Assembly: GCA_905221295.1 (NCBI GenBank)
Contig: CAJNCP010000017.1
Coordinates: 1 to 24,164, forward strand
Direction of reading: 5' to 3'
Origin: a bacterium
GTDB lineage: Bacteria; Bacillota; Bacilli; Lactobacillales; Streptococcaceae
DNA length: 24,164 nt
Position numbers and translations under genes: made by a program. Under the pieces are notes generated by a model. The model was not told the DNA's origin. It saw only the letters and a list, made by a program, of their open reading frames with translations, and did no database searches. Positions 1-23,241 of this stretch are shown here, piece by piece; position 1 is the stretch's first letter; each line of letters begins with the position of its first letter.

Positions 1-357
1 GGGGCGGTCGATTTTATCCTTGATGTAGGTGGGAACATTCCCAGCATACCGCTCCAAGGTAGAGAGTTTGGCTTGCAGAGTTTGGGCAGTGCTGGTTTCA
101 TCGTGATAGGTATAGGACACGACACCGTCCGTATCCTTTTCTTTGATGAGTTTCTGGACCTTCTCAGAAATCTTGACCAGATCCTCCACCCGTTTGGCAA
201 ATCCGGTCGAAGTTGTTCCAGTACTATAGGCTCCTGCTTGAGCATTGGTGTAATTTCCATAGCCACTGCTAGAGACTGTAGCATTTTCAGTGAGACCTGT
301 CAGGGCTTGTTTCATCGTCTTCCAGGTCGATGAATGAAGTTCTACATCTTTGGTCAT
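1..357 (-). CDS. Probable T7SS effector or accessory protein, N-terminal part (cut by window edge)
   Basis: Only the first 119 codons are present; the reading frame is open to base 1, so the C-terminus lies outside the window. The ATG at 357 overlaps the stop of the upstream gene (ATGA, 4 nt), showing translational coupling within the minus-strand operon. The N-terminus has no signal peptide or membrane segment. It contains a Gly/Ser/Thr/Tyr-rich stretch (about residues 30-50) followed by helix-forming, charged sequence. I do not recognise a family and it lacks the usual LXG N-terminus. As the last and apparently largest gene behind several small helical T7SS-type genes, it occupies the place where an effector normally sits; this is inference from position. 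Its GC content looks higher than that of the neighbouring replicon genes. Confidence 0.6.
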   Translation of the reverse strand, partial: MTKDVELHSSTWKTMKQALTGLTENATVSSSGYGNYTNAQAGAYSTGTTSTGFAKRVEDLVKISEKVQKLIKEKDTDGVVSYTYHDETSTAQTLQAKLSTLERYAGNVPTYIKDKIDRP

Positions 358-749
358 TGGTCACCTCGCGGAATGATTCCCAGAGTTTTTAAGTTTTGTA
401 CGAGAGCGGGATCAGCAACAAGACCATTTATAAAATCATCTCTAAGCTTGGTATCTTGTTCGATCATTTGATTCATCATGCTTAAAATCTCACTATTAGC
501 ACGTCGGTATAGGTCTCCGACTTCATTCACTTTGTTGAGCATATCAGCATAGTGATCCATTGCTTTCGAGGCTTCTCCACCTTCATAATATTTCGTTTCA
601 GATAGGCTCTTCAATTTTGGAGCCAAGTTATTTTGAAATGAAATTTCAATGTTGGTGATGTAAGACATGATTGCATGCATTTCATCAGGATTCATGGTGA
701 TTTCGTTAGATCCACCACCACCCATTACAGTCGTTTCAGTCACTACCAT
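354..749 (-). CDS. Small helical WXG100-like protein, T7SS associated
   Basis: 131 residues from the ATG at 749. I chose this start because GGGAGGAGG lies about 9 nt upstream; a longer in-frame start at 803 would lie deep inside the upstream gene. It overlaps the end of the 232-residue gene by 14 nt. The predicted fold is a helical hairpin: a long amphipathic helix up to about residue 50, a turn with Y55-E56-G57 where WXG100 proteins carry W-x-G, then a second long helix. A Gly-rich stretch sits at residues 10-13. It is probably a partner or targeting factor for the gene that follows. No family name can be given from sight. Confidence 0.65.
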   Translation of the reverse strand: MVVTETTVMGGGGSNEITMNPDEMHAIMSYITNIEISFQNNLAPKLKSLSETKYYEGGEASKAMDHYADMLNKVNEVGDLYRRANSEILSMMNQMIEQDTKLRDDFINGLVADPALVQNLKTLGIIPRGDQ

Positions 750-1434
750 TTTCAAAATCCTCCTCCCTAAACGGAATAGCAAGCCAGCTATACAATCTCT
801 CAAGGAAATAGTATTGGCTAAAGCGGTATAACTCTTCTTGATTTACATCAAATCCTAATAGTTCACCCTCTTCTTCAACGAATAGATACGAAGCTGTTAA
901 TAATGCTGCGTGTCTGGTCTCGCACATTTGTTCCAAAGGATAATACTGTACCATCAGTGCTCGATCTGATGCTAAAGCCGTTTCGATATCAGGAGTTAGT
1001 TGCTTTCTTTCAGTTAGAAAATCAATCTCATCTTCCAGAGGAATCCTTGTCACCAATGGGAGCTTGTCTTGAAGCAGCAATAAGCGACTCATAGGACTAA
1101 TCTTGACAAGTTGATATCCCTGACCAGTATCTACGATTAGGATAGAAAAGTTACTATCTCGGCTTTGCATGAAATAGAAATTATTTAGAATGACCAAAGT
1201 TCTACCTAAGCAATATTCTTTTAGAGTCTCAACTATGACAAACCCTGCTTTTGTTAGTGAACCATCCTCATTCACCAAACCTTTTTTCTCAAGATCTTCT
1301 TTGGCTATCGTCCATATGAGTTCAGAAGCAGTGACAATGTCATCTAGCGTTGGTAACCCGGGCATCAATTCCCCACCAAAGGCACCGATTAAATAATGGA
1401 GTTCATGAATAGAAAACGTTTCTTTATGTGACAT
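736..1434 (-). CDS. 232-residue protein of T7SS effector locus, possibly EspG-like chaperone (DUF5081-like)
   Basis: Cytoplasmic-looking protein of 232 residues with mixed alpha/beta character and no membrane segment. The ATG at 1434 lies 2 nt after the previous stop and has AAAGGGG upstream. The N-terminal third is helical with a Gly-Leu-Val segment near residue 53, and the middle contains alternating hydrophobic strands (about residues 80-115). The arrangement of helix, GL turn, then beta sheet, sitting between small WXG100-like genes, recalls mycobacterial EspG chaperones and a DUF5081-type Firmicute family. I make that comparison from general pattern only and hold it weakly. It overlaps the next gene by 14 nt, consistent with coupled translation. 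Confidence 0.6.
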   Translation of the reverse strand: MSHKETFSIHELHYLIGAFGGELMPGLPTLDDIVTASELIWTIAKEDLEKKGLVNEDGSLTKAGFVIVETLKEYCLGRTLVILNNFYFMQSRDSNFSILIVDTGQGYQLVKISPMSRLLLLQDKLPLVTRIPLEDEIDFLTERKQLTPDIETALASDRALMVQYYPLEQMCETRHAALLTASYLFVEEEGELLGFDVNQEELYRFSQYYFLERLYSWLAIPFREEDFENGSD

Positions 1435-1436: not shown

Positions 1437-1736
1437 TTACAACCCCTTTATTGATGCAACTTCTGATGAGTTATTGTAATTATCAATTGATTTTTTCAGA
1501 CCAGAGACTGCTTTTTCATGTTCGTTCATGATAGACCTTAGATCCTTATGGTATTTATGGATAATGTCTAAATAGGATTCAAAAGCTACCTTGGTCTTTC
1601 CTGACCACTTGGCGGATTGGAGATAACTTTTTAATCGGGTCACCGTTTGATAAGAATTCGTCAACTCTTGGTTAATCTCTTTTGAAAGCTGAATAGCAGT
1701 TTCCAAATCTTTATATTTGATTTTTAAGTCCGCCAT
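1437..1736 (-). CDS. WXG100/DUF5344-like small T7SS protein
   Basis: 99 residues, all helical, with a W44-S45-G46 motif in the turn between two amphipathic helices, which is the defining WXG100 feature; length is also typical (about 100). GGAGG lies 8 nt before the ATG. It follows the 133-residue gene by 5 nt and precedes the 232-residue gene by 2 nt. Pairs of a DUF5082-like and a DUF5344-like gene ahead of an effector are the known layout of LXG loci in Bacillus (ywqH-ywqI-ywqJ), and this gene takes the second position. Expected role: heterocomplex partner that targets the effector to EssC. Confidence 0.75.
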   Translation of the reverse strand: MADLKIKYKDLETAIQLSKEINQELTNSYQTVTRLKSYLQSAKWSGKTKVAFESYLDIIHKYHKDLRSIMNEHEKAVSGLKKSIDNYNNSSEVASIKGL

Positions 1737-1741
1737 AAATC

Positions 1742-2143
1742 TTACCTCCGTCTTTTATTTCTATTTCTACGTTCCTCAGCCTGACGTCTTGCTTCAGCTT
1801 CCCTCTCTCTGCGTTCTTGCTCAGCTAAACGCTCATAGTATTTGTATCGTTCATAGGCTGCATCAACAGCACTCGATAAGCTTTTTGCATCGCTAGACTG
1901 ATTGGTTCGTACAGTATCAACTTTTCCTTTTACTCGACCTTCGCTATCACTAAAAACATCCTCTGGAATAAAACTTGAACTCATTGAAGGTCGAGAATTG
2001 GTATAACTATCGACTTTTCCTTCCATTGTTTTTAATTTAGAATTAAAGCTTTTTAATTGACTGTTCAAATCGTTATACAATGCTTTATATTGTTCCCTTT
2101 TCTTTTCTGTATCTGTTCCAAACCACGCGTCCCATAATGACAT
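1742..2143 (-). CDS. Coiled-coil DUF5082-like T7SS accessory protein
   Basis: 133 residues; first gene of the minus-strand operon. AAAGGAGG is placed 9 nt before the ATG. The N-terminal half is a coiled coil (about residues 12-45), the middle is a linker rich in Ser and Pro, and the C-terminal third is a helix ending in a strongly basic tail made almost entirely of Arg, Lys, Glu and Gln. No signal peptide or membrane segment. Size, coiled-coil content and first position match DUF5082-type LXG partners (YwqH-like), but the W-x-G turn is not evident, so the family assignment is tentative. Confidence 0.65.
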   Translation of the reverse strand: MSLWDAWFGTDTEKKREQYKALYNDLNSQLKSFNSKLKTMEGKVDSYTNSRPSMSSSFIPEDVFSDSEGRVKGKVDTVRTNQSSDAKSLSSAVDAAYERYKYYERLAEQERREREAEARRQAEERRNRNKRRR

Positions 2144-2212: not shown

Positions 2213-2244
2213 CAAGTAACGCCATCTAACTCATCTAATTATTT

Positions 2245-2272
2245 ACTATACATATCCATTAACAAATGTCAA
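2245..2272 (-). promoter_or_regulatory. Sigma-A promoter of minus-strand T7SS operon
   Basis: On the minus strand: TTGACA (2272-2267), a 16-nt spacer, then TATAGT (2250-2245). A perfect -35 with a near-consensus -10 about 100 nt before the first gene. It lies downstream of the rep stop codon, so the operon need not depend on rep transcription. Confidence 0.7.
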
Positions 2273-2305
2273 AAAATAAAGCGACTATCTTCTATAAATC
2301 TCTCA

Positions 2306-3604
2306 TTAAGAATCTAATTTTTTTAGCATTTCTGCTTTTTTTCTTTCAAGTTCCTGACGCTGCTCTTCTGTTATCTCATTCCTATAGTTAGGATTTGACC
2401 AAGATGGAACATTGGTCTTTTGGGATTCGCCAAAAATTTCCCTTTCAGCGTTCTCAATATCTTCCATCTTCTTCACTCCTGCCTTTTCCCAATTTTCTAA
2501 CGTCTTAAACAGCCAGCCCGGACCTCGTTTTTTATTCATTGTTACCTTATCTAGGGCGGCAACTACTACTTCTTCAGACATACTTTGACAAAATTTAACT
2601 AGTCTTTGTCTGTTGTTCTTATTGTCATACTCTGGTTTATTACTAAAAGTTTTAAGAAAGAGCTGAATAACATTAAAATACTCTAAATGCTTATCGTCAC
2701 CTTTACTGTCGGATAATTCCTCAAAGACAATATTGCTTCCATCAATACTCTTAATATAATTCAGATCTATTGAAAATGGTTTAAATGAAAAAATGTATTT
2801 TACTATCTTTCTATTTTTTCGCTCAATAGTATACTCTAAATCTCTAATAATTTGACGTCCATCATCGTAAGTGAGACTCTGTAATTCTTTAATAGCACTA
2901 TTTAGAATTGTTAATTTATTTTTTTTAGCGTATGGCGTTGTGAATTTCATAATAATATTTTCAAATACTTCTGCATCAATGGATATTGGACGATTTATAG
3001 AACGATATTCAGCAATCCATCGATATAAATTTTGCCCATATTTTTTTAATTGATTATGTAGTTCACGACCAAATTTTAAATACTTTGTCTCAGACCAATC
3101 ATCATTATTAAATAAATCAACAACTCGTTTTTTATTCTGAATAATGTTCCCTGCTTCATCCAAAATCTCATTTTGATAAACAGCTTCTGAAATATGAACT
3201 GTCAATTCTTGATTGATATGATCTACTCTAAATTTTTCTGTAAATAAAGGATAATCATCAAAAACACTATTCCCTTTTTCATCCATCTTAATAAATTTTT
3301 TATATGATACGAGTTTTAACTTAGTCTGAATCTCCTCAATAAAACGATTGAAGTGTTTCCCTGTATTGGCATAATATACTCCATCAGAATTTTTTAAAAC
3401 ATTATCCGACATATACGCAATGTCAGAATAAGAGATAGTGATCCCATCAGGAGAATATTTATCACGAATTTCACCCAATAAAGCATATACAACATTTGCT
3501 TCATTCTTTGATAAATCCCCAAGATCAAAATATTTTGGAAAATCTCTATCATATTGAATAACAGCCCTATACTTTTTTTGATTTACATCTTTTAGTTTTG
3601 CCAT
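2306..3604 (-). CDS. rep: Rep_3-type plasmid replication initiator
   Basis: 432 residues. The protein resembles Rep_3/RepB-like initiators of iteron-controlled theta plasmids: an N-terminal winged-helix region (about residues 10-140) opening with a 'DLSKNEANVVYALLG'-type segment, a second winged-helix region (about 150-290), then a long charged C-terminal extension. Start ATG at 3604 has AAAGG 7 nt upstream. The gene is divergent from a 16-copy iteron array, the expected binding site of such an initiator, and from parA. Base composition is strongly AT-rich, unlike the T7SS effector genes nearby. Role: binds iterons, opens the origin and recruits host DnaA and helicase (family knowledge). No truncation seen, so the replicon may be functional. 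Most likely autoregulated by binding near its own promoter. Confidence 0.85.
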   Translation of the reverse strand: MAKLKDVNQKKYRAVIQYDRDFPKYFDLGDLSKNEANVVYALLGEIRDKYSPDGITISYSDIAYMSDNVLKNSDGVYYANTGKHFNRFIEEIQTKLKLVSYKKFIKMDEKGNSVFDDYPLFTEKFRVDHINQELTVHISEAVYQNEILDEAGNIIQNKKRVVDLFNNDDWSETKYLKFGRELHNQLKKYGQNLYRWIAEYRSINRPISIDAEVFENIIMKFTTPYAKKNKLTILNSAIKELQSLTYDDGRQIIRDLEYTIERKNRKIVKYIFSFKPFSIDLNYIKSIDGSNIVFEELSDSKGDDKHLEYFNVIQLFLKTFSNKPEYDNKNNRQRLVKFCQSMSEEVVVAALDKVTMNKKRGPGWLFKTLENWEKAGVKKMEDIENAEREIFGESQKTNVPSWSNPNYRNEITEEQRQELERKKAEMLKKLDS

Positions 3605-3658
3605 CTACTAACCTTTCTAACTCCGTTTTTTCTAAGGTTATACAGGAATCTCCCTTAT

Positions 3659-3667
3659 ATTTTATCA
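3659..3667 (-). promoter_or_regulatory. Possible extended -10 promoter for rep
   Basis: Minus-strand TGA-TAAAAT (TGn plus -10 hexamer), about 55 nt before the rep ATG. No good -35 lies 17 nt upstream, so this is a weak call. Confidence 0.3.
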
Positions 3668-3735
3668 TATTTTATACTCAAAGAAAAACTATGATAGACT
3701 TCCTAGCCTATAAAATTATTGACTCCCTTAGTTTA

Positions 3736-4250
3736 CCTTGCGTTTCTAGGACTTTCATTTTGTTCTATTCTTACTACCTTGCGTTTCTAGGACTTTCATT
3801 TTGTTCTATTCTTACTACCTTGCGTTTCTAGGACTTTCATTTTGTTCTATTCTTACTACCTTGCGTTTCTAGGACTTTCATTTTGTTCTATTCTTACTAC
3901 CTTGCGTTTCTAGGACTTTCATTTTGTTCTATTCTTACTACCTTGCGTTTCTAGGACTTTCATTTTGTTCTATTCTTACTACCTTGCGTTTCTAAGACTT
4001 TCATTTTGTTCTGTTCTTGTTACCTTGCGTTTCTAGGACTTTCATTTTGTTCTATTCTTACTACCTTGCGTTTCTAAGACTTTCATTTTGTTCTATTCTT
4101 ACTACCTTGCGTTTCTAAGACTTTGCCTTGCGTTTCTAAGACTTTACCTTACGTTTCTAAGACTTTACCTTACGTTTCTAAGACTTTGCCTTGCGTTTCT
4201 AGGACTTTACCTTACGTTTCTAAGACTTTGCCTTGCGTTTCTAGGACTTT
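3736..4250. repeat. Iteron array, 16 copies, origin of replication
   Basis: Sixteen copies of CCTTGCGTTTCTAGGACTTT or close variants (G/A changes at two positions). Copy starts read by eye: 3736, 3777, 3818, 3859, 3900, 3941, 3982, 4023, 4064, 4105, 4126, 4147, 4168, 4189, 4210, 4231. The first nine are followed by a fixed 20-21 nt filler (TCATTTTGTTCTATTCTTACTA-like, given here only as a type), so spacing is 41 bp; the last seven abut directly at 21 bp. The location between rep and the AT-rich region is that of a theta-plasmid oriV. Expected function: Rep binding and copy-number control. Confidence 0.9.
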
Positions 4251-4395
4251 AGACTCTCAAAAACCTTGGTATCACTAGCATTATACTATTCCCTAACTAA
4301 TATAATTTAAATAACTTATATAACTTATATATAATTAAAATTAACTAAAAATTATTAATATTTTTTTTCATAATCATTAAATATGTAACAAAAAG

Positions 4396-4404
4396 TTATC
4401 CCCA
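4396..4404 (+). promoter_or_regulatory. DnaA-box-like site
   Basis: TTATCCCCA differs from the consensus TTATCCACA at one base. It sits about 145 bp from the last iteron in the AT-rich region, which fits initiator-plus-DnaA opening. A single 9-mer is weak evidence alone. Confidence 0.45.
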
Positions 4405-4533
4405 TCAATACACAAAAACAGATATACTCTACTTTATGTGTTCCAACTAAATAATTTACATTATTTACATAAACTATGAAAATTATACAAATAATATAAA
4501 TATTCAAAGTGATATGAATGCTATATGTCTGAC

Positions 4534-4569
4534 ATTACTCATAAAACTTCGATCGTTTTTATGAGTAAT
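4534..4569. repeat. 13-bp inverted repeat (hairpin) in origin region
   Basis: ATTACTCATAAAA (4534-4546) pairs with TTTTATGAGTAAT (4557-4569) across a 10-nt centre containing CGATCG. Too AT-rich for a normal terminator. It may be a protein-binding or single-strand structure of the origin or partition site. Confidence 0.55.
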
Positions 4570-4629
4570 TAGAAAATAGAATGATTGTTTTAATTAAAAT
4601 AATTAAACAACGTATTTAAATTTATTTAT

Positions 4630-4666
4630 GTGTCATTTGACACGGATATCTAAATTTTGATAGAAT
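4630..4666 (+). promoter_or_regulatory. parA promoter with overlapping operator palindrome
   Basis: TTGACA (4637-4642), an 18-nt spacer, then TGA-TAGAAT (TG at 4658-4659, -10 hexamer 4661-4666). The 14-bp palindrome GTGTCATTTGACAC (4630-4643, 6-bp arms) covers the -35 hexamer, so a bound repressor would block the polymerase. Autoregulation by the partition proteins is the likely use (inference). The leader to the parA ATG is about 125 nt. Confidence 0.65.
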
Positions 4667-4703
4667 AGAAAAGTAATAGTGATTATATCAGATTGTCCCA
4701 TTG

Positions 4704-4715
4704 CTACACGTGTAG
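4704..4715. promoter_or_regulatory. Perfect 12-bp palindrome in parA leader
   Basis: CTACACGTGTAG, fully self-complementary, between the parA promoter and start codon. A candidate partition (parS-like) or operator site; only one copy was seen. Confidence 0.4.
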
Positions 4716-4797
4716 TAATTGAAGTATTAATCTAAGTTGTATATGCTTTTTAAATTATATACATATTATAAATAATGTACGTAAAGGAGTAATCTCT

Positions 4798-5631
4798 ATG
4801 AGTGTTAAAAATGGCTTCAAAACAGTTACTTTTTATATTGATAAAGGAGGAAGCGCAAAAACAACAAATACTTTTAATTATGTAAAAGATGCAGTTTCTA
4901 CTAGCAATATTAAAGCGTTAGTAATTGATGGAGATAGATCTCGAAATCTAACCAATGTCTTTGGAGTAAATGGTGACAAGACAATTGCTGATCTATTTAA
5001 ATCTGATGGAGAAGATTTCGCTATTTACCCAACCAGTGATCCAAGAATTGACATTATTGTTGGTGACAGTGATTTTACTGACGAGGGAGTTAATATTAGA
5101 GGGGCTTCTAGTCCTTATCTAGTCTTATTCACATGGTATTCAATGAATTACCAAATGTTGTCGGAAAAGTATGACTTAATTGTCATTGATACTCATAATG
5201 ATACCTCAATTGTTACTTCTAATTTAATTGCTGTTAGTGATGTTGTAGTATCTGTAACGACGCCAGATGGTCCTAGTTTTACAGCGTGGAGAAATCTACC
5301 GGAGTTTATTGAAAAAGTCAAAGCAAAAGCACGTAATCCATTTACGAAAGAGACAGTAGTTGATCTTAAGCTTGGATTGATAGCTAACAATATTATTTTT
5401 TATGGCAATAATGTTTCGGCTCCAAGTAAAGAATTCTTATCTTTAGTTGAAAATGATGAGCATTTCTTAGGACTTATTCCCAATCGTCCAATATTTGTAA
5501 GTACTTTGCTGGAAGGAAAAAGTATTTTCGAAATAGTAGATGAAATGCCAATACATAAGCAGCAGAAGTATCAGAACCTTCTTGCTGGAGTTAGAGGTAT
5601 CTACGCAAAAATCAATGCGATGTTAGAATAA
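4798..5631 (+). CDS. parA: ParA-family plasmid partition ATPase
   Basis: 277 residues. It has the ParA/MinD arrangement: a deviant Walker A with signature Lys K16 and P-loop Lys K21 (K16-G-G-S-A-K-T-T23), a Walker A'-type 'VIDGDRSRNLT' segment near residue 41, and Walker B 'LIVIDTHND' with the Asp near residue 131. The residue before the P-loop lysine is Ala (A20), where the family nearly always has Gly. No N-terminal helix-turn-helix, so it is the short (type Ib-like) form. AAAGGAG lies upstream of the ATG. The next gene begins 56 nt downstream. Role: ATP-dependent positioning of the replicon on the nucleoid with its ParB partner. Confidence 0.85.
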   Translation: MSVKNGFKTVTFYIDKGGSAKTTNTFNYVKDAVSTSNIKALVIDGDRSRNLTNVFGVNGDKTIADLFKSDGEDFAIYPTSDPRIDIIVGDSDFTDEGVNIRGASSPYLVLFTWYSMNYQMLSEKYDLIVIDTHNDTSIVTSNLIAVSDVVVSVTTPDGPSFTAWRNLPEFIEKVKAKARNPFTKETVVDLKLGLIANNIIFYGNNVSAPSKEFLSLVENDEHFLGLIPNRPIFVSTLLEGKSIFEIVDEMPIHKQQKYQNLLAGVRGIYAKINAMLE

Positions 5632-5687
5632 TAAATGCAATATTTACACAAAATGTATAACGTGATATAAATATAGGAGAAAATACA

Positions 5688-6008
5688 ATGGTAAAAAATA
5701 AGTTTGAAGCATTCAGTGGACAACTAAAAAGAAAAGAAAATAACCTCGAAGAGGAAGCGATAGAAGTCAATTCTAATAAAGTTTCAGAAGTAAAAAAAGT
5801 TGATGGTCGTTTGAAAAAACCAGAAGATAAAGTTAAGAGTAAAACAATTGCAATGGTACCTAGAGTTGCTAAAATGTTAACTCAACAGAGGTTGAAGAAT
5901 GCCCCCCTACTATCCGATAGTCAATACATCCAAAATTTAATCTGGATGGATGCTACTGGAGAACCATTCTTTGATAGTGAGACTAAAGAAATCTTACCTG
6001 GAAGATAA
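5688..6008 (+). CDS. Small ParB-like partition or DNA-binding protein
   Basis: 106 residues directly behind parA with AGGAGA before the ATG. The N-terminal half is highly charged and probably disordered. The region about residues 52-85 reads as a short strand (KTIAMVP) followed by two helices, the pattern of ribbon-helix-helix DNA-binding proteins that act as centromere-binding partners of short ParAs. I see the pattern but no diagnostic motif, so the assignment rests mainly on context. It probably binds the palindromes upstream of parA and represses that promoter. A terminator follows at 6100. Confidence 0.65.
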   Translation: MVKNKFEAFSGQLKRKENNLEEEAIEVNSNKVSEVKKVDGRLKKPEDKVKSKTIAMVPRVAKMLTQQRLKNAPLLSDSQYIQNLIWMDATGEPFFDSETKEILPGR

Positions 6009-6099
6009 AAAATGTAATAAATAGTTTAAATTATATAAATTATTTAAATGTTTTGTTAAAGTTGTAAAGATAGATTCGATTTTTAATTCTGTTACAAGC

Positions 6100-6150
6100 A
6101 AACCACAATATTAAACTGGATTATTTCTCTGTGTTTAATATTGTGGTTTT
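6100..6150 (+). terminator. Rho-independent terminator of parA operon
   Basis: A perfect 17-bp stem, 6100-6116 with 6133-6149 (arm AAACCACAATATTAAAC), 16-nt loop, ending in TTTT. The same stem could act in the other direction less well. The rest of 6009-6372 holds no gene; a small AACACAA/TTGTGTT inverted repeat lies at 6201-6219. Confidence 0.8.
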
Positions 6151-6372: not shown

Positions 6373-6756
6373 ATGAAGTCATTAAAAATTATAGGAATCA
6401 TTTTAGCTAGTTTGTTGGTTATCGTTGGGCTAAGCGTAGGAGGATATAAAGTAATGAAAAAAGTAGAACAAGACGAGATGGTTAGAATTGTAGAGAGTGA
6501 GGAAGCGAAAGAGATTTTTAAAGTACGCTTAAAACAAATAGATCCGAATGCTCTAACAGAAAAAGGAATTATTAAATCATATAAAGTTGATTCTTTTGAA
6601 CATAATCCAATGGGAGGAATAATTGTTTATTTGTATATAAATGATTCCTCAAGTTACAATGTTAGTGTATTCTTACATAAAGATAGTGATGGTAAATTAA
6701 GAAATGGCGGCGGGAGTAATCCGCCTCTGGAAAAATTAAAAGGAGACTCAAACTGA
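6373..6756 (+). CDS. DUF1310-like membrane-anchored protein, putative immunity protein of lipase effector
   Basis: 127 residues from the ATG at 6373, chosen because AAAGGAG lies 5 nt upstream; an in-frame upstream GTG has no such site. One N-terminal transmembrane helix (about residues 5-25) without a lipobox Cys, followed by a soluble domain predicted outside the membrane. The body, with segments such as 'RIVESEEAKEIF' and 'HNPMGGIIVYLYIND', matches my memory of the streptococcal DUF1310 family. Its stop overlaps the start of the lipase-like gene by one base (TGATG), so the two are translated together. An outward-facing anchored protein upstream of a secreted lipase is where the S. aureus TslA system has its TilA immunity lipoproteins; immunity function is inferred from that. 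Confidence 0.7.
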   Translation: MKSLKIIGIILASLLVIVGLSVGGYKVMKKVEQDEMVRIVESEEAKEIFKVRLKQIDPNALTEKGIIKSYKVDSFEHNPMGGIIVYLYINDSSSYNVSVFLHKDSDGKLRNGGGSNPPLEKLKGDSN

Positions 6757-7988
6757 TGAATTCTATGTATAGCGACTATGAACGAAAGTTAATCGCTGAA
6801 AAAGAATACGATAAAAAATTACAAGTTGACAATGATATTTATATAGAAACTCGAAAAAGCTCCATCGGCACAGTCCGTCAGGTGATCGAAAACGAGACAG
6901 GAATAAAGGTTTACGTAGTTGAGAGTCCAGACCATTCTGAAGTGTCTGTTCTCTATGAAGGTTCTAAAGCGCCATTTGAAGAAGGATGGGAAGTGGATTG
7001 GAAAGTCAATGATATTCCTATGGCGAAAAATATCATAACCAATAAGAAAGAAGTGACACCTCAGTTAGAATCAGCGGCTACAACACTGAATAACGTACTA
7101 GAAAAGTATCCGAACGCTAAAATCTCAGTTTATGCTCACTCTCTTGGCTCTATGGATGCGCAATACGCCCTAGCTAATGTTAGGGACATTTCACGTATTT
7201 CAGGAGCTTATATTTACCAAGGACCGAATATCTATCCGGTCTTGACGGAAGAACAACGGCAGCGTGTGGATGCGATGAAATACCGGATTCATAATTATAT
7301 CGATCAACGAGATACAGTTCCAATCGGATATACTAAGGATGGTCCAGGATACAAAGCAGAATTGAACAGTAAAAATGCTGTTGGAATCGTTCATCACGTA
7401 GATTCGAACTTTAACTGGGATCACGTGGCACAACACATGTGGGGCGGTTATGTTTTTAATGAGGATGGTAGCCTCAGAATCAAAAAGGATACCTCATCTT
7501 TTGAAAAACGTTATTCTTCTGGTTTGGATAAGGTTTCCAGTGGCTTGTATTACTATGCAAAGGCTAAAGAGGCATTGGCTTCAGGCGGTTATACGAGTGG
7601 TGAGGAACTCTTTTTAGACTCCGAACATGCCTTAACGATTTCGTCGGGATTGCATGAAGTCGCAAATGCTGGTCAGGAAGAGATTCGCTCCATAGTTCGT
7701 AAAGCTCACCAAAAAGCAGAGAAAATAGTAGCGAGTACCTATCAAGTTCCTTTTGGTTTTATTTTGTCACCTACAGAGGTGGCGACAGCCTATTCTGATG
7801 GAGGAGTATCTCGTACGACAATCGTAGATGATCTTGATCATTATTTCTATCCAAAAATCAAAAAAGCAGAAAAATTAGCTGAAGATTTTCAAAGTTTAGA
7901 AAAACAAATAGCAGATGGTGTCCAAAAGACATTAGATAACGATAAAGAGTTAGCAGGGAATTTTAAAGAATGGATGAAAATCAAGTAA
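6756..7988 (+). CDS. Lipase-like T7SS effector with C-terminal helical targeting domain (TslA-like)
   Basis: 410 residues, no signal peptide. The N-terminal half is an alpha/beta-hydrolase: the nucleophile elbow reads A-H-S129-L-G, a class-3-lipase-like 'RDTVP' segment gives a candidate acid D186 (D183 is the alternative), and a His-rich stretch 'WDHVAQH' gives H223 or H227. From about residue 245 the protein is helical and Lys/Glu-rich with no membrane segment. Enzyme first and helical secretion domain last is the reverse of normal LXG toxins and matches S. aureus TslA, a T7-secreted phospholipase whose genes run TilA-TslA-TlaA1-TlaA2. Here the same order is seen: anchored protein, lipase, two small helical proteins. 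Substrate is presumably membrane phospholipid of rival bacteria (inference). The elbow has Ala in place of the first Gly of GxSxG. Confidence 0.75.
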   Translation: MNSMYSDYERKLIAEKEYDKKLQVDNDIYIETRKSSIGTVRQVIENETGIKVYVVESPDHSEVSVLYEGSKAPFEEGWEVDWKVNDIPMAKNIITNKKEVTPQLESAATTLNNVLEKYPNAKISVYAHSLGSMDAQYALANVRDISRISGAYIYQGPNIYPVLTEEQRQRVDAMKYRIHNYIDQRDTVPIGYTKDGPGYKAELNSKNAVGIVHHVDSNFNWDHVAQHMWGGYVFNEDGSLRIKKDTSSFEKRYSSGLDKVSSGLYYYAKAKEALASGGYTSGEELFLDSEHALTISSGLHEVANAGQEEIRSIVRKAHQKAEKIVASTYQVPFGFILSPTEVATAYSDGGVSRTTIVDDLDHYFYPKIKKAEKLAEDFQSLEKQIADGVQKTLDNDKELAGNFKEWMKIK

Positions 7989-8380
7989 TCTGGCAGGAAT
8001 TAAGGACAAAGCAAAACAATCTAGATTCATTAGATGAACGCAATCGCTCTATTCGCCAACAAAGAGAAAAACAATATGAAGACCTTCAACAAAAACGGAA
8101 TCAATTGTTGCATATGATGGAGAGAAAGTACCAGATGATCCAGCATATCCTGGGACAAGTGGAAGTGGATACTACTGAAGAAAGAGGACGGCTAAATAGA
8201 ATAGCTTCGTACTTTAGTCAGACAGTATCCATGGGATTTACAAGGAATCAGCGTGCTTTGGAACAAAGGATTGAAAAAGAAGAGATTGAGTATAGACAAG
8301 AACGACGAAAATTGGAAGATGATATAGATACATTACATCGTCGAAAGATGAAACTCGATCAAGAAAAAAAGAAGGGATAG
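7970..8380 (+). CDS. Coiled-coil LXG-type partner protein (DUF3958-like)
   Basis: 136 residues, almost wholly charged coiled coil with a more hydrophobic middle (about residues 60-85). It overlaps the 3' end of the lipase-like gene by 19 nt; AGGGAA lies about 10 nt before the ATG. Size and composition fit the DUF3958 group of LXG accessory proteins described in Streptococcus, and the position equals TlaA1 behind TslA. Expected role: binds the helical C-terminal domain of the lipase-like effector and guides it to EssC. Family name given with moderate certainty. Confidence 0.65.
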   Translation: MDENQVIWQELRTKQNNLDSLDERNRSIRQQREKQYEDLQQKRNQLLHMMERKYQMIQHILGQVEVDTTEERGRLNRIASYFSQTVSMGFTRNQRALEQRIEKEEIEYRQERRKLEDDIDTLHRRKMKLDQEKKKG

Positions 8381-8383
8381 TCC

Positions 8384-8677
8384 ATGTTTGAAGAAATGAT
8401 TAATGACTTCTTTTCAGGAGCGAATAATAATATGACGGAGATTCAGAAGGGACTAGAATGTTTACTAATCAGCCATATCTATGCACCACTCAAATTGAAT
8501 GAGCGTAATAATTTGATGTCAGATGGTGATATCAAAATCAAAACAGAAGCGCAAGCAACGAAGACAGCATTGGGGATGATTTCTAGTCAAATTGATACAA
8601 CGATGGAGGGTCCTTATTCAACAAAGGTTGTTGAGACTTTGAAGACGAAAGAAAAAGATTATGATACGATTGTGTAG
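8384..8677 (+). CDS. Small helical T7SS partner protein
   Basis: 97 residues, 3 nt after the coiled-coil gene with AAGGGA before the ATG. Mostly helical; the second half (from about residue 45) reads like the N-terminal part of TIGR04197/DUF3130 small T7 proteins, but the typical C-terminal helix is short, so it may be a variant or slightly truncated. Position equals TlaA2 of the TslA module. No effector gene follows; the downstream DNA is decayed. Confidence 0.6.
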   Translation: MFEEMINDFFSGANNNMTEIQKGLECLLISHIYAPLKLNERNNLMSDGDIKIKTEAQATKTALGMISSQIDTTMEGPYSTKVVETLKTKEKDYDTIV

Positions 8678-8875: not shown

Positions 8876-9265
8876 ATTGCTTGAAATATTTTAAAAATTA
8901 CTAGATTTTGAGACTCAATTTTTAACTCATATTTATTTTTTCATTGAAACATATTTAGTCAAATTCTCAAAGAATTTAGTGTAGTTAAAAAAATAAATCG
9001 TAGAACAGAATGGAACGTTTTTAAGGAGTGGCAGGTCGCTAATCTGCTCTAGAAATTTATCTCAGCGATTAGCGTTTGACTAAAAATAAAAATTATTTTC
9101 AGAGAGAAATTATAACTTAAAAAAATTTATTAAGGCTAACTTTTGATGGTGAAATGTTTCATAAACTTATAATCTTTTTTAATCGTTGGTATTTCAATTA
9201 TTAACTCAAAAAACGAATCAAATAAGAAATCTATTAGACTTAAAAATAAGAATTTTGAATGTTTT
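8876..9265. other. Intergenic AT-rich DNA without a gene
   Basis: No convincing reading frame on either strand, with many stops in all frames. The only structure seen is the inverted repeat at 9037-9074. Confidence 0.5.
9037..9074. repeat. Strong inverted repeat (hairpin)
   Basis: CGCTAATC-T-GCT (9037-9048) pairs with AGC-GATTAGCG (9064-9074): 11 pairs with a single bulged T, 15-nt loop. No T-run follows, so it is not a standard terminator. Its GC content stands out from the surrounding DNA. Confidence 0.5.
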
Positions 9266-9541
9266 ATTTTGGGACAGACTATTGTCTGTCTAAAGGACCC
9301 CTAAACCCTTGATATATCTAGTTTCATGGGGGTTGGAAACAGGGGGGACAAAACCACTTTTTATTTTGGGACAGACTATTGTCTGTCTAAAGCCCTCCTA
9401 ACCCCTTGATATATCTAGCTTTATGGGGATTGGAAACAGGGGGGAAAGTGCTCATTTTGTTTTGGGACAGACAAGTATAAGCTGAAACAACAGCTAACCC
9501 CTTGGTACACCTGGTTTTGTTAAGGTTGGAAACAGAAGGGA
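9266..9541. repeat. Three tandem copies of a ~97-bp-period structured repeat
   Basis: Copies at about 9266-9348, 9363-9445 and 9459-9541. Shared features in order: TTTTGGGACAGAC, a hairpin, AACCCCTTG..., an AT-rich segment with GATATATC in copies 1 and 2, then GGTTGGAAACAG (GATTGG in copy 2) and a G-run. In copies 1 and 2 the hairpin is GACAGAC-TATT-GTCTGTC. In copy 3 the right arm is lost, but a different stem, AGCTG-AAACAA-CAGCT (9480-9495), occupies the same interval. A second possible stem, AACC(C) with (G)GGTT, brackets the AT-rich part. About 14 nt separate the copies. A faint fourth half-copy may begin near 9554. Not a CRISPR (unit too long, unequal spacers). Confidence 0.7.
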
Positions 9542-10144
9542 CTTTATATGACTTCAACCCCTTTTTAAGTAAAGTTTGGTAGAAATAGATAAATTTCATG
9601 TCTAAAAATAGAAGTAATGTAGCTAGCAAGCGGGAATGAATAGGACGTATTTCAAAGTGTGTAATTGCTTGTTGATTATCTGAACTATAGGTGGAGAAAA
9701 AAATATTTTTTAACCAGAGTATGCTCTGGCTTATATACTATTTATTGTGACTAAAGTATTTATCAAGAACCTTCTCTTTTGATAAATATTATCTCTTGAT
9801 AGTTAAAGAGTTAGATATAAAAACACTTTGTTCTTTTTTTGGAAATGGGGTAATGATACTATCTCATTTTAAAGATGTTTACAGAATAGACAGGGCGGAG
9901 TTCTTATCTATTCCATAGTACTTCACTCTTGCTTGTTAGATATATTATTTCACAAGTTCAAGGTCTGTCTAAACTGAAAAATGTAGCATAGTACGAGGGG
10001 GATTATAGTTGTAATACGAATCGTATTAACTAGTAGTAAAAATTTACATTTAAGAAAATGAAATAAAGTTAAGACGGTGGTAAAATACATTGAAATAAAC
10101 AATAAATAATATGATTTTAAAATACCATTTTTAAATAAAAATAC
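9542..10144. other. Gene-free leader region upstream of esxA, with several hairpins
   Basis: No gene supported on either strand. Inverted repeats seen: CCAGAG-TATG-CTCTGG (9714-9729), flanked on the left by an A/T run and therefore terminator-like on the minus strand; TATTTATCA (9757-9765) with TGATAAATA (9780-9788); GAATAGA (9884-9890) with TCTATTC (9907-9913); and the palindrome at 10012-10028. Confidence 0.5.
10012..10028. promoter_or_regulatory. 17-bp operator-like palindrome upstream of esxA
   Basis: TAATACGAATCGTATTA: two perfect 8-bp arms around a single central base, about 117 bp before the esxA -35. Symmetric sites of this size usually bind a dimeric regulator. The regulator is not identifiable here. 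Confidence 0.5.
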
Positions 10145-10202: not shown

Positions 10203-10505
10203 ATGTCAGGACAAATTCGTGTATCTACAGAAACACTTCGCTCACGTGCTCGTGAATATGGGAAAGCTGCTAATGATATTAGAGTTATTTTAAACAATCT
10301 TCAACGTTTGCAAGACACTCTACGTTCAGAGTGGGAAGGTGCTGCCTTCCAAGGTTTTGAGCGCCAATTCCTTGAATTGAAACCGAAGGTTGAAAACTTT
10401 GCTGATTTGATGCAACAAATCAATACACAACTTGATAAGACTGCTGAATCAATGCAACAAAATGACCAAGCTTTATCTAAAAACTTTGGCATTCAAAATA
10501 GTTAA
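10203..10505 (+). CDS. esxA: EsxA, WXG100 core substrate of T7SSb
   Basis: 100 residues, a helical hairpin with W44-E45-G46 at the turn, the WXG100 signature. AGGAG lies 7 nt before the ATG. First gene of the secretion locus, with its own promoter and followed by a terminator. It is secreted through the EssC channel, usually as a dimer, and is required for system function in relatives (family knowledge). Codon use looks like that of highly expressed genes (CGT for Arg, AAC and GAA), in keeping with an abundant secreted protein. Confidence 0.95.
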   Translation: MSGQIRVSTETLRSRAREYGKAANDIRVILNNLQRLQDTLRSEWEGAAFQGFERQFLELKPKVENFADLMQQINTQLDKTAESMQQNDQALSKNFGIQNS

Positions 10506-10510
10506 GGATA

Positions 10511-10538
10511 AAGTTGAGGATTTCTCCTCAACTTTTTT
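10511..10538 (+). terminator. Terminator/attenuator between esxA and esaA
   Basis: AAGTTGAGGA (10511-10520) and TCCTCAACTT (10525-10534) form a perfect 10-bp stem with a TTTC loop; T-run at 10533-10538. No separate strong promoter was seen before esaA, so read-through probably feeds the downstream genes at a lower level. Confidence 0.85.
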
Positions 10539-10562
10539 ACTACATTTATTTAAGGAGAACAT

Positions 10563-13500
10563 GTGAATAAGAAAGTTTTATTTAGCTTAGGGATGCTACT
10601 GTTATTTGTTACAATGATAGTATCCTTCTTTGCAGTTGTAAAACCAACACCTATCAGTCGAACGAACTCAGATTCCTCAGTGCAACAAGCCCCTATCAAA
10701 GTAGCTGTTGTGAATGAAGATACAGGTAAGGTATATAATGGACAACCGGTTAACATTGCGAATACTTTAGTAAACTCGTTCATAGCTAAAAATAATTACA
10801 AAGTAGAAGTTGTTTCTCGGTCAATCGCTGAAAGCGGTCTAAAAAATGAGACTTATCAGTTGATGATAGTCTTACCAAGTAAATTTTCAGAAGAAGCTTT
10901 AGCGATCGAATCAACTTCACCTGTTCAGGCGAAGTTTCAATATCAAATTCAATCAAGTGATCAACTGACTGTCAAACAGGCTGAACAAGCAGTAGTAGCT
11001 TTCAAAGAGCTCTTTAATAAAGACTTGATTAATATTTATTTCACTAGTATTATTGGGAATTTGAAAACAGCACAAGGCCAGGTTGCTGATGTGGTTACAA
11101 ATGAACATGAGTCACTAACGTCCTTTAATAATAAGTTAGTGGATCCTCTTGCTCAATATAGTCAACAATTTAATGGCTTAGGCTCATCACCGAATAATCT
11201 TTTATCATCGTATTTGTCATTTAACAAGACCCTGTTAAATACAAATGATGCCTTTAAATCAATTATTTCTGTTGACAAGACATATGAAGGAACAATAAGA
11301 CAAATAGATGAGCAACAAAAAAAATGGCAAGGTTCCTTGGATACTAGAGAACAGGCTTTGTCAAACTATGATAATGATTTTTCTAAATTATCAGTTGAAG
11401 AACAATTATCTAAACTAGCAGCTATAAACACCCAAGTTACCAAGAATTTATCAGAGCCGGCTATTTGGAAAGAAACCACTGATACGGCTTCTTCCTATAA
11501 TCAAGATATCGCAAAACTTCTCGAAAGCTTGAAGAATAATAACAAGGAAATTGATGACACCTTATCAAATTATGATAAAAAGATTAGAGAAGCAGTAGAG
11601 GCTTCCTTGGGCAAAAACTCCTCAGTGGTAGATGGAGCAAGTAAAACTCTCGGTAGTTACATCAAGTCGTTGAATACTAGTATGCAAAATCAAATTACTA
11701 GTAAATGGCCAAGTGTATACTACGATGATGCAGCTATAAATAATCTTTCTTTGTCAGATACTGATAAACAACATTTGAAAAATATTAGCGCTTTTATACA
11801 GTGGTATAGTAAAAAGACAGGGAAAGATTTGCCAACTTTGCAAGCTACAACACTTGAAAATGAAGAATTCTCTCAGTTAAAGAATGACATTAAATCTAAG
11901 AGCACAACAAAACGTGAGCTAACTTTACCTTCGTTTGAAGGGAAAATTTCAAAATTAACATTAACAGTACCAAGCGGATACTATCTGAAAGAATCAAACT
12001 ATGATTTTTCTGATCTTGGTGGAGGTAACTATAAAATAAATATTCCTGTTGACTCTTCTGCTGGTATGGCTATTTCTTATACACTAGGAATTAAGAAAGA
12101 AAATGATATCAGTGTCTTATCGCCTGTTGTCGTGAAGTATAAATTAGATACGACTGAGGATGTGAAGGTTGTAAAGGAAGATGCTCCATACGTAGAGGAA
12201 ACAACAGTGACAGATACAGCTCATGCAGCGCCTGTTAGTCCAGCTACTTCTGTAACGTCAAGTTCCTCTACGTCTGATGGGCAGAAACCAACAGAAATTA
12301 TCACAATTACGAAGACCATCACGACTACTAAGATAAATCAAACAGAAAAAAAAGTTTTGAATCGTCATTATGAGATGCAAGACATTATTTCTAACTGGGA
12401 GTACAATCCTACTAAGCTAACTCAAGCGATTTATAAAGATGTTGAGGCGTATCTACAGTTATCAGGACTTGTTACTGCGTTTTACGGCTTAGATTTATCT
12501 AAAAACACGTACTCAGACCAGACATTTGTTCCAGCGGAAGGTTCTCTTGCTGCCTTAGCAAATAATGATGACCTCAAGACCATTGTGACCAATCTAATCA
12601 AAGCGACCACAGTAGAAGCTCTAAAATCAGATTTGAAGATTTCTGATAAAAAATTGACGGATATTCAGTCTCGATTAGCTAACGCTGAGAAATTAACATC
12701 TAATATTGAACAGCTGAGAACAACAACCAAAGATTTAATGACTCAGTTAAGTCAGTTAATTGAACAAACCAAATTAGTGGATAAAACAATTAAAGATAAG
12801 CCTAGTTTTGTTGTAACAGAAAAAGTAGATAATACTAATATGGTTACAGTTAGTATGGATATGAACAGGGACCTAGATACACTGATGTCAGCTAGTAAAA
12901 CGTTGATGGACAATACAAAAGCAAACCAAGCTGTTTCTGAGACGATACAAGCTACTATGACTCAGTTGACGAATGATGTTAATACATTGGAAAGAGACGG
13001 AAAATCATTAAGTGAACGCGTTTCTGAGTTGAAGAAAGTCATGTCTAGTGAATATGGTTCAAACGAAGAATTTCTTAAAAACTTTTCTACTGTTTTAAGC
13101 AATACTAGAACAGGTAACACCAAAAATGAAGCTGTCTATGAATACTTGTCGAATCCTGTTGATGCTTCGAAAATTGGGAATGTCGTATCAGCCGCAACAA
13201 ATTCACCGTCACAGACTAATCGTCAAGATGAAAGGTCAGGACTTCTGATTATCTTAGTCAGCTATCTTGTTAGCTTGGTTGTTGCTTATCTTTTCCAACA
13301 TGCAGATAAAGAAGAATTGCAAAGATTAATCAGTTTGAAGGATCGTTTGTCATGGAGAAATTCTTCTGGACCAATGTTCTTCCTAAGTGTGATTTCAGTA
13401 GCAGCAGGTTCTATAATTGCGATTGTTTCTGGAGTTAAACTTGCTTTCTCTGTAAGTCAGTTGAGTTGGTTTGTAGTACTTCTTGTCTTGGTGAGTCTAA

Positions 13501-13799
13501 TGATGACATATGGTCTGAATATCCTTATGGATAAACTAAAAAGTCTTGGATTTTTGATAAGTATAAGTCTACTACTGCTTTATATCATTTCAGCAACCCA
13601 GTTGTTTGATGAATATTATGTTAACTCAGTTCCTATTTTAGCAATGCTTTCTCCTTTGACATATCTTGAAGGTGTAGTGAAATTGTTTATTAATCAACAA
13701 AGTGGAGTGGAACAGCCAATAGTTATGATTGTCGTTTTAACGATCGCTTTAGGTCTTGGGAATGTTTTCTTGTATCGACAAGTTAAGGATAGCAAGTAG
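10563..13799 (+). CDS. esaA: EsaA, T7SSb membrane channel component
   Basis: 1078 residues, the usual size for streptococcal and staphylococcal EsaA (YueB-like). One N-terminal membrane helix (about residues 5-27), a very large extracellular domain with coiled-coil stretches and a Ser/Thr/Val-rich segment near residues 540-580, then several membrane helices in the last 190 residues (from about 890). The start is GTG at 10563 after AAGGAG; the ATG two bases earlier runs straight into TGA. Relatives form a dimeric arrow-like structure reaching through the cell wall, and B. subtilis YueB is the SPP1 phage receptor. esaA ends 1 nt before essA, so the two are co-transcribed. Confidence 0.93.
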   Translation: MNKKVLFSLGMLLLFVTMIVSFFAVVKPTPISRTNSDSSVQQAPIKVAVVNEDTGKVYNGQPVNIANTLVNSFIAKNNYKVEVVSRSIAESGLKNETYQLMIVLPSKFSEEALAIESTSPVQAKFQYQIQSSDQLTVKQAEQAVVAFKELFNKDLINIYFTSIIGNLKTAQGQVADVVTNEHESLTSFNNKLVDPLAQYSQQFNGLGSSPNNLLSSYLSFNKTLLNTNDAFKSIISVDKTYEGTIRQIDEQQKKWQGSLDTREQALSNYDNDFSKLSVEEQLSKLAAINTQVTKNLSEPAIWKETTDTASSYNQDIAKLLESLKNNNKEIDDTLSNYDKKIREAVEASLGKNSSVVDGASKTLGSYIKSLNTSMQNQITSKWPSVYYDDAAINNLSLSDTDKQHLKNISAFIQWYSKKTGKDLPTLQATTLENEEFSQLKNDIKSKSTTKRELTLPSFEGKISKLTLTVPSGYYLKESNYDFSDLGGGNYKINIPVDSSAGMAISYTLGIKKENDISVLSPVVVKYKLDTTEDVKVVKEDAPYVEETTVTDTAHAAPVSPATSVTSSSSTSDGQKPTEIITITKTITTTKINQTEKKVLNRHYEMQDIISNWEYNPTKLTQAIYKDVEAYLQLSGLVTAFYGLDLSKNTYSDQTFVPAEGSLAALANNDDLKTIVTNLIKATTVEALKSDLKISDKKLTDIQSRLANAEKLTSNIEQLRTTTKDLMTQLSQLIEQTKLVDKTIKDKPSFVVTEKVDNTNMVTVSMDMNRDLDTLMSASKTLMDNTKANQAVSETIQATMTQLTNDVNTLERDGKSLSERVSELKKVMSSEYGSNEEFLKNFSTVLSNTRTGNTKNEAVYEYLSNPVDASKIGNVVSAATNSPSQTNRQDERSGLLIILVSYLVSLVVAYLFQHADKEELQRLISLKDRLSWRNSSGPMFFLSVISVAAGSIIAIVSGVKLAFSVSQLSWFVVLLVLVSLMMTYGLNILMDKLKSLGFLISISLLLLYIISATQLFDEYYVNSVPILAMLSPLTYLEGVVKLFINQQSGVEQPIVMIVVLTIALGLGNVFLYRQVKDSK

Positions 13800-13800
13800 T

Positions 13801-14262
13801 ATGAAAAAAACTATTGTCTTTATTTTTCTATTGTTTTCAATTTTTACAAAGTGGAGTGTTGTTTTTGCAAACGATGGTTCCTTGCAAATAGATACATCTT
13901 TAGATAAAAATACTAAGAAAACAGAGATCCAGTACTTTGAACAGGAGAGTAATTTAACAAAGTTATTTCGTCCTGAGACATATAAATTGATTGATACGAC
14001 TAAAAAAAATGATGAAGAAAAGTATCAATCGGTTAAAACAAACTTATTTATCAAGAAGGTAGAAACAGAGAATATTGTTAATGATTATCAATCTGCTTTA
14101 TTCACCAGTCAAATTCAAGTCAATCATAGTGATAAAAAGAATGTTTCACTTAATAACGTAAATTCTCCGGTTTCTTGGACAGCAATTTTATTGTTTATAC
14201 TAGGGGTAATTGTTACAATCTATTCACTCGTATATAAAAAATTACATAATTTTAAACAATAA
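13801..14262 (+). CDS. essA: EssA, T7SSb membrane protein
   Basis: 153 residues from the ATG at 13801. I chose this start because it gives a standard N-terminal hydrophobic signal (about residues 3-23, ending near Ala-Asn-Asp) and follows the esaA stop by one base. The middle is polar and predicted outside the membrane; the C-terminal helix (about residues 121-143) anchors it, followed by a short basic tail. Small size, two hydrophobic ends and position between esaA and esaB identify it; the sequence itself is poorly conserved in the family. A terminator follows. Confidence 0.85.
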   Translation: MKKTIVFIFLLFSIFTKWSVVFANDGSLQIDTSLDKNTKKTEIQYFEQESNLTKLFRPETYKLIDTTKKNDEEKYQSVKTNLFIKKVETENIVNDYQSALFTSQIQVNHSDKKNVSLNNVNSPVSWTAILLFILGVIVTIYSLVYKKLHNFKQ

Positions 14263-14282
14263 AATCGATAGAAAAATATTTT

Positions 14283-14310
14283 GAGGAGATACGGCTGTAT
14301 CTCCTCTTTT
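14283..14310 (+). terminator. Terminator after essA
   Basis: GAGGAGATAC (14283-14292) and GTATCTCCTC (14297-14306), a perfect 10-bp stem with a GGCT loop followed by TTTT. It separates the esaA-essA transcript from esaB onward. Confidence 0.8.
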
Positions 14311-14345
14311 ATAAGCAAAAAATTCTTTAATATTCATGTTTTGCG

Positions 14346-14354
14346 TGATATAAT
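14346..14354 (+). promoter_or_regulatory. Extended -10 promoter of esaB operon
   Basis: TGA-TATAAT (TG at 14346-14347, hexamer 14349-14354), with only a weak -35 (TTTAAT, 14326-14331) 17 nt upstream. A perfect extended -10, about 30 nt before the esaB start. This gives esaB-essB-essC and the effector genes their own transcript. Confidence 0.7.
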
Positions 14355-14385
14355 AAACATAATACTATAAGATTAGGAGATTTCC

Positions 14386-14628
14386 ATGGAAGAGTACATT
14401 AATATTAGTCTGGATTGTTCGCCTTTTTTATCTAAAATATTAGATTTAAGAGTCCCTGCCGAGTTAACGATTAAAGAATTGATAAAAATCGTCTCTGATA
14501 CTTATGGTATTGGGGTTAAGGTAATGAATCCAAGTGTAAGAAATCAACAGTCGGGAGAAATTCTTGCTAGTACGAGCAGTCTAGCATTGGTGAAAGACGG
14601 AGTTTTATTAAAACTGGAAAGAATATAG
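14386..14628 (+). CDS. esaB: EsaB, ubiquitin-like T7SSb protein
   Basis: 80 residues, matching YukD/EsaB proteins in size and pattern: an N-terminal strand 'YINISLDCS', a helix with 'TIKELIKIVSDTYGI', and a C-terminal strand 'DGVLLKLERI', as in the ubiquitin fold. It lacks the C-terminal Gly-Gly needed for conjugation, as usual. Cytoplasmic; in relatives it regulates secretion or binds the EssC motor region. It lies 14 nt before essB behind an extended -10 promoter. Confidence 0.9.
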   Translation: MEEYINISLDCSPFLSKILDLRVPAELTIKELIKIVSDTYGIGVKVMNPSVRNQQSGEILASTSSLALVKDGVLLKLERI

Positions 14629-14642
14629 TAAGGGAGTCAGGT

Positions 14643-15815: not shown

Positions 15816-15824
15816 GAGTGGTCT

Positions 15825-20980: not shown

Positions 20981-20984
20981 GGTC

Positions 20985-21269: not shown

Positions 21270-21278
21270 GGGGGCTAT

Positions 21279-23240: not shown

Positions 23241-23241
23241 A

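What the first reader, a model, noticed from the sequence alone, without database searches (positions are those of the whole stretch)
2306..6008. Plasmid-type replicon (rep, iterons, parA, parB-like) lies between T7SS gene blocks
A Rep_3-type initiator, 16 iterons, an AT-rich origin region and a partition pair sit between a T7SS effector operon on one side and the lipase module plus full esx/ess machine on the other. T7SSb core loci are normally chromosomal. Either this is a plasmid carrying a complete T7SSb with several toxins, or a plasmid has integrated inside a T7SS island. A mobile, self-replicating antibacterial secretion system would be notable.
Basis: partly seen in the sequence, partly recalled or inferred. 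Interest (0 to 1): 0.8.

Follow-up and report, generated by a model that had tools for sequence, protein, structure and literature searches.

The report
Streptococcal plasmid-like carrier of toxin-secretion system
A DNA fragment from a streptococcus joins an apparently intact plasmid replication and partition unit to a full antibacterial type VII secretion machine with several toxin gene sets, so this weapon may travel on a plasmid instead of always sitting in the chromosome.

Summary
Between two type VIIb secretion (T7SSb) blocks lies an intact iteron replicon: a RepE-like initiator with a DnaD-like tail, 16 exact iterons, a 21% GC region, ParA and a small partner. The window is a whole 24,164-bp contig, open inside effector genes at both ends, so circularity and copy number cannot be tested. 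Contigs of 31,273 bp (Rep, TslA, EssB) and 22,830 bp (Rep, TslA) support linkage, inferred only from matching contig lengths. Rep at 89-100% identity occurs in 44 listed proteins (42 near full length) from 419 contigs, longest 46,694 bp, and looks constrained. Among 284 Streptococcus genomes only two hold near-identical rep; both copies are broken, keep one or two recognisable iterons and no par, yet adjoin the same esxC-esxB-esaE-esxD-like operon, one in a chromosome. Best reading: a plasmid of perhaps 30-47 kb carrying T7SSb, whose rep-effector segment has entered chromosomes and decayed (0.7). Recent integration remains open (0.2). Public records already hold T7SSb plasmids (Limosilactobacillus, Enterococcus); my EssB search found none in Streptococcus. 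A 2024 paper calls plasmid carriage outside T7SSa unclear, so this is a testable case.

The parts
2306..3604 (-). rep: replication initiator, two winged-helix domains (RepE/pi-like) plus C-terminal DnaD-like domain
3736..4250 (+). array of 16 exact iterons (20-bp core; spacing 41 bp then 21 bp)
4252..4797 (.). AT-rich (21.4% GC) presumed unwinding region; one DnaA-box-like site with one mismatch at 4396-4404, not convincing against the chance level
4798..5631 (+). parA: plasmid partition ATPase, best plasmid relatives 38-44% in Streptococcus
5688..6008 (+). small ParB-like partner of ParA (34% to the gene after parA on a closed plasmid)
6100..6149 (+). perfect 17-bp inverted repeat after the par genes; possible terminator or par site (inference; the consensus scan found no terminator-like site)
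1742..2143 (-). EsxC-like, by position and size only
   Evidence: synteny in PMC10653861 (passages)
1437..1736 (-). WXG100 protein, EsxB-like
   Evidence: above the Pfam cut-off; below the NCBIfam cut-off
736..1434 (-). DUF5081 protein, EsaE-like by position
354..803 (-). EsxD-like, by position; start codon uncertain
1..357 (-). N-terminus of an EsaD-like effector by position, cut by the contig end
6373..6756 (+). DUF1310 protein in the position of the TilA immunity lipoprotein
6756..7988 (+). TslA-like lipase effector
7970..8677 (+). two small proteins (7970-8380, 8384-8677), TlaA1/TlaA2-like by position; no Pfam match
9262..9552 (.). three 97-bp tandem units sharing period and core with arrays on streptococcal plasmids
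10203..20201 (+). T7SSb core: EsxA, EsaA, EssA, EsaB, EssB, EssC
20546..23664 (+). YwqH-like partner (20546-20980), LXG toxin (21279-23240) and presumed immunity gene (23242-23664, no Pfam match)

Best explanation
The window is part of a theta-replicating iteron plasmid of a streptococcus related to oral species. It carries a complete T7SSb with at least three effector modules. Rep binds the 16 iterons and, as RepE does on mini-F, opens the adjoining AT-rich region; its DnaD-like tail probably helps load the helicase. ParA and its small partner keep the plasmid in dividing cells, and the toxin-immunity genes would punish loss. The rep-effector segment has also entered chromosomes, where rep, iterons and par decayed. 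Shown: anatomy, fold of Rep, open frames, constraint on Rep, linkage on this contig, decayed relatives. Inferred: autonomous replication, circular form, size (perhaps 30-47 kb), secretion activity.
Against: Both contig ends are open and neither end sequence recurs. No relaxase, integrase or other transfer gene was recognised, though only 20 of the window's proteins were scanned with Pfam. No near match in 72,556 plasmid records. In relatives with EssC 92-97% identical whose flanks I looked at, the core is on chromosome-type contigs. TslA at 80-88% identity also occurs on contigs of 219-361 kb. The contig-size limit may reflect repeats in effector genes: five EssB groups with 110-174 contigs reach 61-419 kb, at least one holding isolate genomes, but some smaller EssB groups stay below 33 kb. 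Contig counts may count one sample more than once. The substitution test ignores kinship.
Confidence: 0.7

Rival explanations
1. The plasmid is integrated in a chromosomal T7SS island in the source strain, recently enough that rep and par are still intact.
For: The T7SSb core lies on chromosome-type contigs in the seven relatives whose flanks I looked at (G208, G132, G102, G067, G049, G001, G002). A decayed rep next to the same operon follows leuS-GNAT-GNAT in G001, where four relatives have ruvB.
Against: In four relatives with both modules (G208, G132, G102, G067) operon and core point the same way, and none of the four has rep at E 1e-20; in the window they diverge from the replicon, with par and TslA between. 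Rep intact in many contigs, none over 46.7 kb, fits a free element better. No chromosomal gene was recognised in the window.
Confidence: 0.2
2. An integrative element (ICE or IME) that carries a rep-par unit and alternates between circle and chromosome.
For: Integrase-like genes lie beside T7SSb in G132 and G067, and G208 and G102 carry T7SSb directly after rpsI (own reading of the sequences).
Against: No integrase or excisionase was recognised in the window; att sites were not searched for. A replicon this rich in iterons is more than such elements usually keep (recalled).
Confidence: 0.07
3. Assembly chimera that joins a plasmid to a chromosomal T7SS contig.
For: The source is not a held genome and no read data are at hand.
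Against: The left junction recurs in L001 and L002; the right one is supported by two other contigs through shared lengths.
Confidence: 0.03

Closest known systems
pSNU175-4, Limosilactobacillus fermentum (NZ_CP019033), circular 29-kb plasmid
   Same: Replication and partition genes with T7SSb genes (WXG100, EsaA, EsaB, EssB, EssC annotated) on one circle
   Different: Other replicon and partition type (RepA, ParM), MobQ relaxase; EssC 43% identical; its EssB was not matched by the window's EssB
Enterococcus sp. PLM3 plasmid1 (AP025691), circular 68-kb plasmid
   Same: RepS, a partition-type gene and T7SSb, with a lipoprotein gene and a gene whose C-terminal part resembles the window's TslA before the core
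   Different: Conjugative; EssC 38%, EssB 26% identical; the TslA match is 20% over 131 residues, C-terminal only
Rep_3 iteron plasmids (mini-F RepE, R6K pi)
   Same: Two winged helices, iterons, AT-rich region
   Different: Extra DnaD-like C-terminal domain; sequence identity about 16%
Streptococcal plasmids with a related Rep (S. equinus, S. ruminicola, S. salivarius and others, 11 records)
   Same: Rep 33-40% identical over 88-96% of the query
   Different: None of the 11 is among the five EssB matches
S. aureus esxC-esxB-esaE-esxD-esaD and tilA-tslA-tlaA1-tlaA2 modules
   Same: Gene order (PMC10653861, PMC10730906; passages)
   Different: Here they flank a replicon; the immunity position holds a DUF1310 protein; apart from WXG100, DUF5081 and lipase matches the names go by position

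Membership tests
Rep_3-type iteron replicon | Initiator with two winged-helix domains | tested here: met
Rep_3-type iteron replicon | Direct-repeat iterons next to rep | tested here: met
   16 exact copies
Rep_3-type iteron replicon | AT-rich unwinding region | tested here: met
   21.4% GC; unwinding itself not tested
Rep_3-type iteron replicon | DnaA boxes in the origin | tested here: inconclusive
   one site with one mismatch; 12 such matches in the window, 7.1 expected
ParA-type partition locus | ParA ATPase | tested here: met
ParA-type partition locus | DNA-binding partner protein | tested here: inconclusive
   34% to a plasmid homologue; model confidence too low, pLDDT 63
T7SSb | EsxA, EsaA, EssA, EsaB, EssB, EssC | tested here: met
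   EsaB below its curated cut-off
T7SSb | EssC-dependent secretion | not testable with these tools
   needs culture
Free plasmid | Closed circle | not testable with these tools
   open contig, end sequences do not recur
Free plasmid | Intact replication and partition genes | tested here: met
Mobilisable plasmid | Relaxase or origin of transfer | tested here: inconclusive
   no relaxase among the 20 proteins scanned; array at 9262-9552 resembles plasmid arrays
EsaD module | esxC-esxB-esaE-esxD-esaD order with C-terminal toxin | tested here: inconclusive
   order and sizes fit; EsaE fold not tested; toxin domain lies beyond the contig

The most novel reading that the evidence does not exclude
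Oral streptococci share a family of roughly 45-kb T7SSb plasmids that are mobilised in trans by larger conjugative plasmids through a shared 97-bp repeat array, and that seed chromosomal T7SS effector loci, leaving dead rep genes behind: an antibacterial secretion system spread as a plasmid and a source of chromosomal systems.
Probability: 0.25. Interest if true: 0.82.

Novelty: new variant of a known kind. Interest (0 to 1): 0.6.

Why it matters
T7SSb toxins shape competition among Gram-positive bacteria, yet how whole systems move is poorly known. A 2024 comparative study states that plasmid carriage is known for T7SSa and unclear for other variants (PMC11217815, Discussion read). A streptococcal T7SSb plasmid, with decayed copies of its replicon beside chromosomal effector genes, would give one concrete route: plasmid to chromosome. 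It would also make immunity genes transferable together with the weapon.

Tried and rejected
Empty-site idea for the two halves in G002: in the relatives I compared by eye, G237, G116, G123 and G095, PPIase and the matching tRNA-Ser array are 330-750 kb apart (each searched 98 genomes), so rep-operon and core are separate loci there. The PPIase-rep join in L002 crosses a run of 154 N, so I do not use it as proof of a chromosomal site. L001 has no such gap, and its bordering IS30-type gene is the only intact copy found in that genome at E 1e-50.

Frameshifts in L002 as sequencing error: rejected as the whole cause, since two of its stops come from base changes. L001 and L002 share a one-base loss in an A run, which may be common ancestry or chance.

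Searches of viral contigs: Rep, no relative; iteron core, 5 stretches with one match each and no window rep, par or lipase-module match in them; the 97-bp unit in two forms, none. Plasmid records: megablast of 2300-6100 and of 6200-24164, none; blastn of 1-8000, only a 338-bp rep stretch on two plasmids at 67%; blastn of the window's 97-bp array, none. The closed plasmid with the best ParA has a Rep that is not convincingly related (E 0.029). Folding the 106-aa partner alone gave a poor model. PADLOC: no match for 5 proteins. PDB by sequence with Rep: none.

Dropped rows. The 2,304-bp length shared by a Rep and a TslA row: too short to hold both genes as spaced in the window. Rep fragments P0049, P0055 and P0077 (97-100% identity, 63-75% coverage) are not in the count of 44, and P0043 and P0044 in it cover 87-90%. 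The table shows only pieces over 150 bp or within the replicon. The EssC search gave 676 plasmid records, 25 listed, many with only the FtsK-type ATPase in common; I did not go through the rest. Of the 8 loci I listed genes for four.

Papers: the listings (25 of 47; 6 of 6; 7 of 7; 15 of 46; 10 of 13; 10 of 10; 12 of 60; 3 of 3; 12 of 1,420) showed no title or abstract start that reports a streptococcal T7SSb plasmid. Passages only were seen of PMC10653861 and PMC10730906, passages and the Discussion of PMC11217815. One paper search was left unused.
Full report
What was checked. The window is the whole of a 24,164-bp contig: its Rep and its TslA are listed with exactly that contig length. No genome is held for it. 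Both ends lie inside T7SS effector genes, the left one so named by position, and the end sequences do not recur.

The same layout on a larger contig. G001 also has a 77.9-kb contig (C3) with an intact Rep 69% identical, eight 21-bp iterons of another sequence, a ParA, a 102-aa gene after it, a TraG-like protein and a weak Replic_Relax match below its cut-off. It is plasmid-like by content; its closure was not tested. I take it as the family's usual setting.

Decayed copies beside the same T7SS operon. Among 284 genomes of the genus, Rep at E 1e-20 is found in five. Three hold only distant copies (33-41%). The two near-identical copies, G001:C19 and G002:C16, are broken: G002 has two stops made by base changes plus two frameshifts; G001 has internal deletions and a frameshift. 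With up to one mismatch they keep two and one iteron, and these are the only genomes of 284 with any. No window parA or partner is encoded beside them; G001 has ParA relatives at 37% and 30% on other contigs. In both, rep abuts the same operon as in the window, at 85-91% identity over the matched pieces. In G001 the setting is chromosomal by my reading: leuS-GNAT-GNAT, an IS30-type gene, then the relic, without a gap. In G002, G133, G208 and G049 the same genes are followed by ruvB, the site without insert (four of eight loci listed; where ruvB lies in G001 was not checked). In G002 the join to PPIase crosses a scaffold gap and proves nothing. In both genomes the T7SS core sits elsewhere, next to tRNA-Ser genes, and homology to the window stops at the same place, 10102.

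Arrangement. In G208, G102, G132 and G067 operon and core lie in the same direction, and none of them has rep; in G208 only about 0.2 kb of unmatched DNA separates them, and in G208 and G102 they follow rpsI. In the window they point away from each other with rep, iterons, par and the lipase module between. A single crossover between plasmid operon and chromosomal operon would not give this order (inference); two arms leaving a replicon would.

Is it free? For: 44 listed proteins at 89-100% identity, the window included, come from 419 contigs, and the longest contig is 46,694 bp; 42 of the 44 cover at least 96% of Rep. Contigs may repeat between source collections. Their substitutions avoid columns conserved in 33 distant relatives (8 of 61, 20.8 expected, p = 0.0004; kinship not corrected). 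Only the copies beside chromosomal genes or a scaffold gap have decayed. Linkage to T7SSb on other contigs comes from lengths that recur in separate protein searches: 31,273 bp for Rep, TslA and EssB, and 22,830 bp for Rep and TslA. Jittered controls (lengths 8-60 kb) give means of 0.014, 0.033 and 0.10 for the three pairs of lists (EssB list 118 of 120). Against: no circle, no depth, no transfer gene recognised. The size limit may reflect effector repeats: five EssB groups with 110-174 contigs reach 61-419 kb, while some smaller ones stay below 33 kb. TslA at 80-88% identity occurs on contigs of 219-361 kb.

Cargo. Left: an esxC-esxB-esaE-esxD-like order and the start of an EsaD-like effector, the order described for EsaD in S. 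aureus (PMC10653861, passages); identification is by WXG100 and DUF5081 hits and otherwise by position. Right: a TslA-like lipase with two small partners, as in PMC10730906 (passages), but with a DUF1310 protein where TilA would be. Then all six core genes and an LXG toxin.

Known or new. In 72,556 plasmid records an EssB search gives five: three Enterococcus records, two of them of equal length, and two Listeria records of 2.9 Mb and 569 kb. That search is not exhaustive: it misses the EssB of a circular 29-kb Limosilactobacillus plasmid with a nearly complete annotated T7SSb, found with EssC. So T7SSb on plasmids exists in records, apparently rarely, and no EssB match is streptococcal. A 2024 study calls this unclear for variants other than T7SSa (PMC11217815, Discussion read). 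The paper listings (several capped) showed no streptococcal case.

Verdict. A real, intact plasmid replicon linked to a complete T7SSb; most likely a plasmid (0.7), with recent integration as the main rival (0.2).

Noticed in passing
window 9262-9552; L019:1631-1899; L170:5253-5517; L171 near 7934: A 97-bp tandem array upstream of the T7SS core shares period and core with arrays on a 78-kb plasmid-like contig, directly upstream of a gene with a weak Replic_Relax match near a TraG-like gene, and with intergenic arrays on two circular S. anginosus plasmids without an annotated relaxase. Local alignment scores beat all 500 shuffles of the window stretch, but narrowly (18 against a maximum of 17; 23 against 21). 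Possibly an origin of transfer or recombination site.
   Followed up: partly
G208 and G102 (L065, L069): T7SSb lies directly after rpsI, a place known from recall as an integration site for streptococcal mobile elements; integrase-like genes lie beside it in G132 and G067.
   Followed up: no
L017, L018: In G001 and G002 the T7SS core begins next to tRNA-Ser genes and homology to the window stops at the same base, 10102.
   Followed up: partly
window 6373-6756: A DUF1310 protein stands where the TilA immunity lipoprotein stands in S. aureus; DUF1310 proteins may be lipase immunity proteins in streptococci.
   Followed up: no
AP025691 (L137): A conjugative Enterococcus plasmid from an ant host carries T7SSb with a lipoprotein gene and a gene with a TslA-like C-terminal part just before the core, the same order as in the window.
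   Followed up: partly
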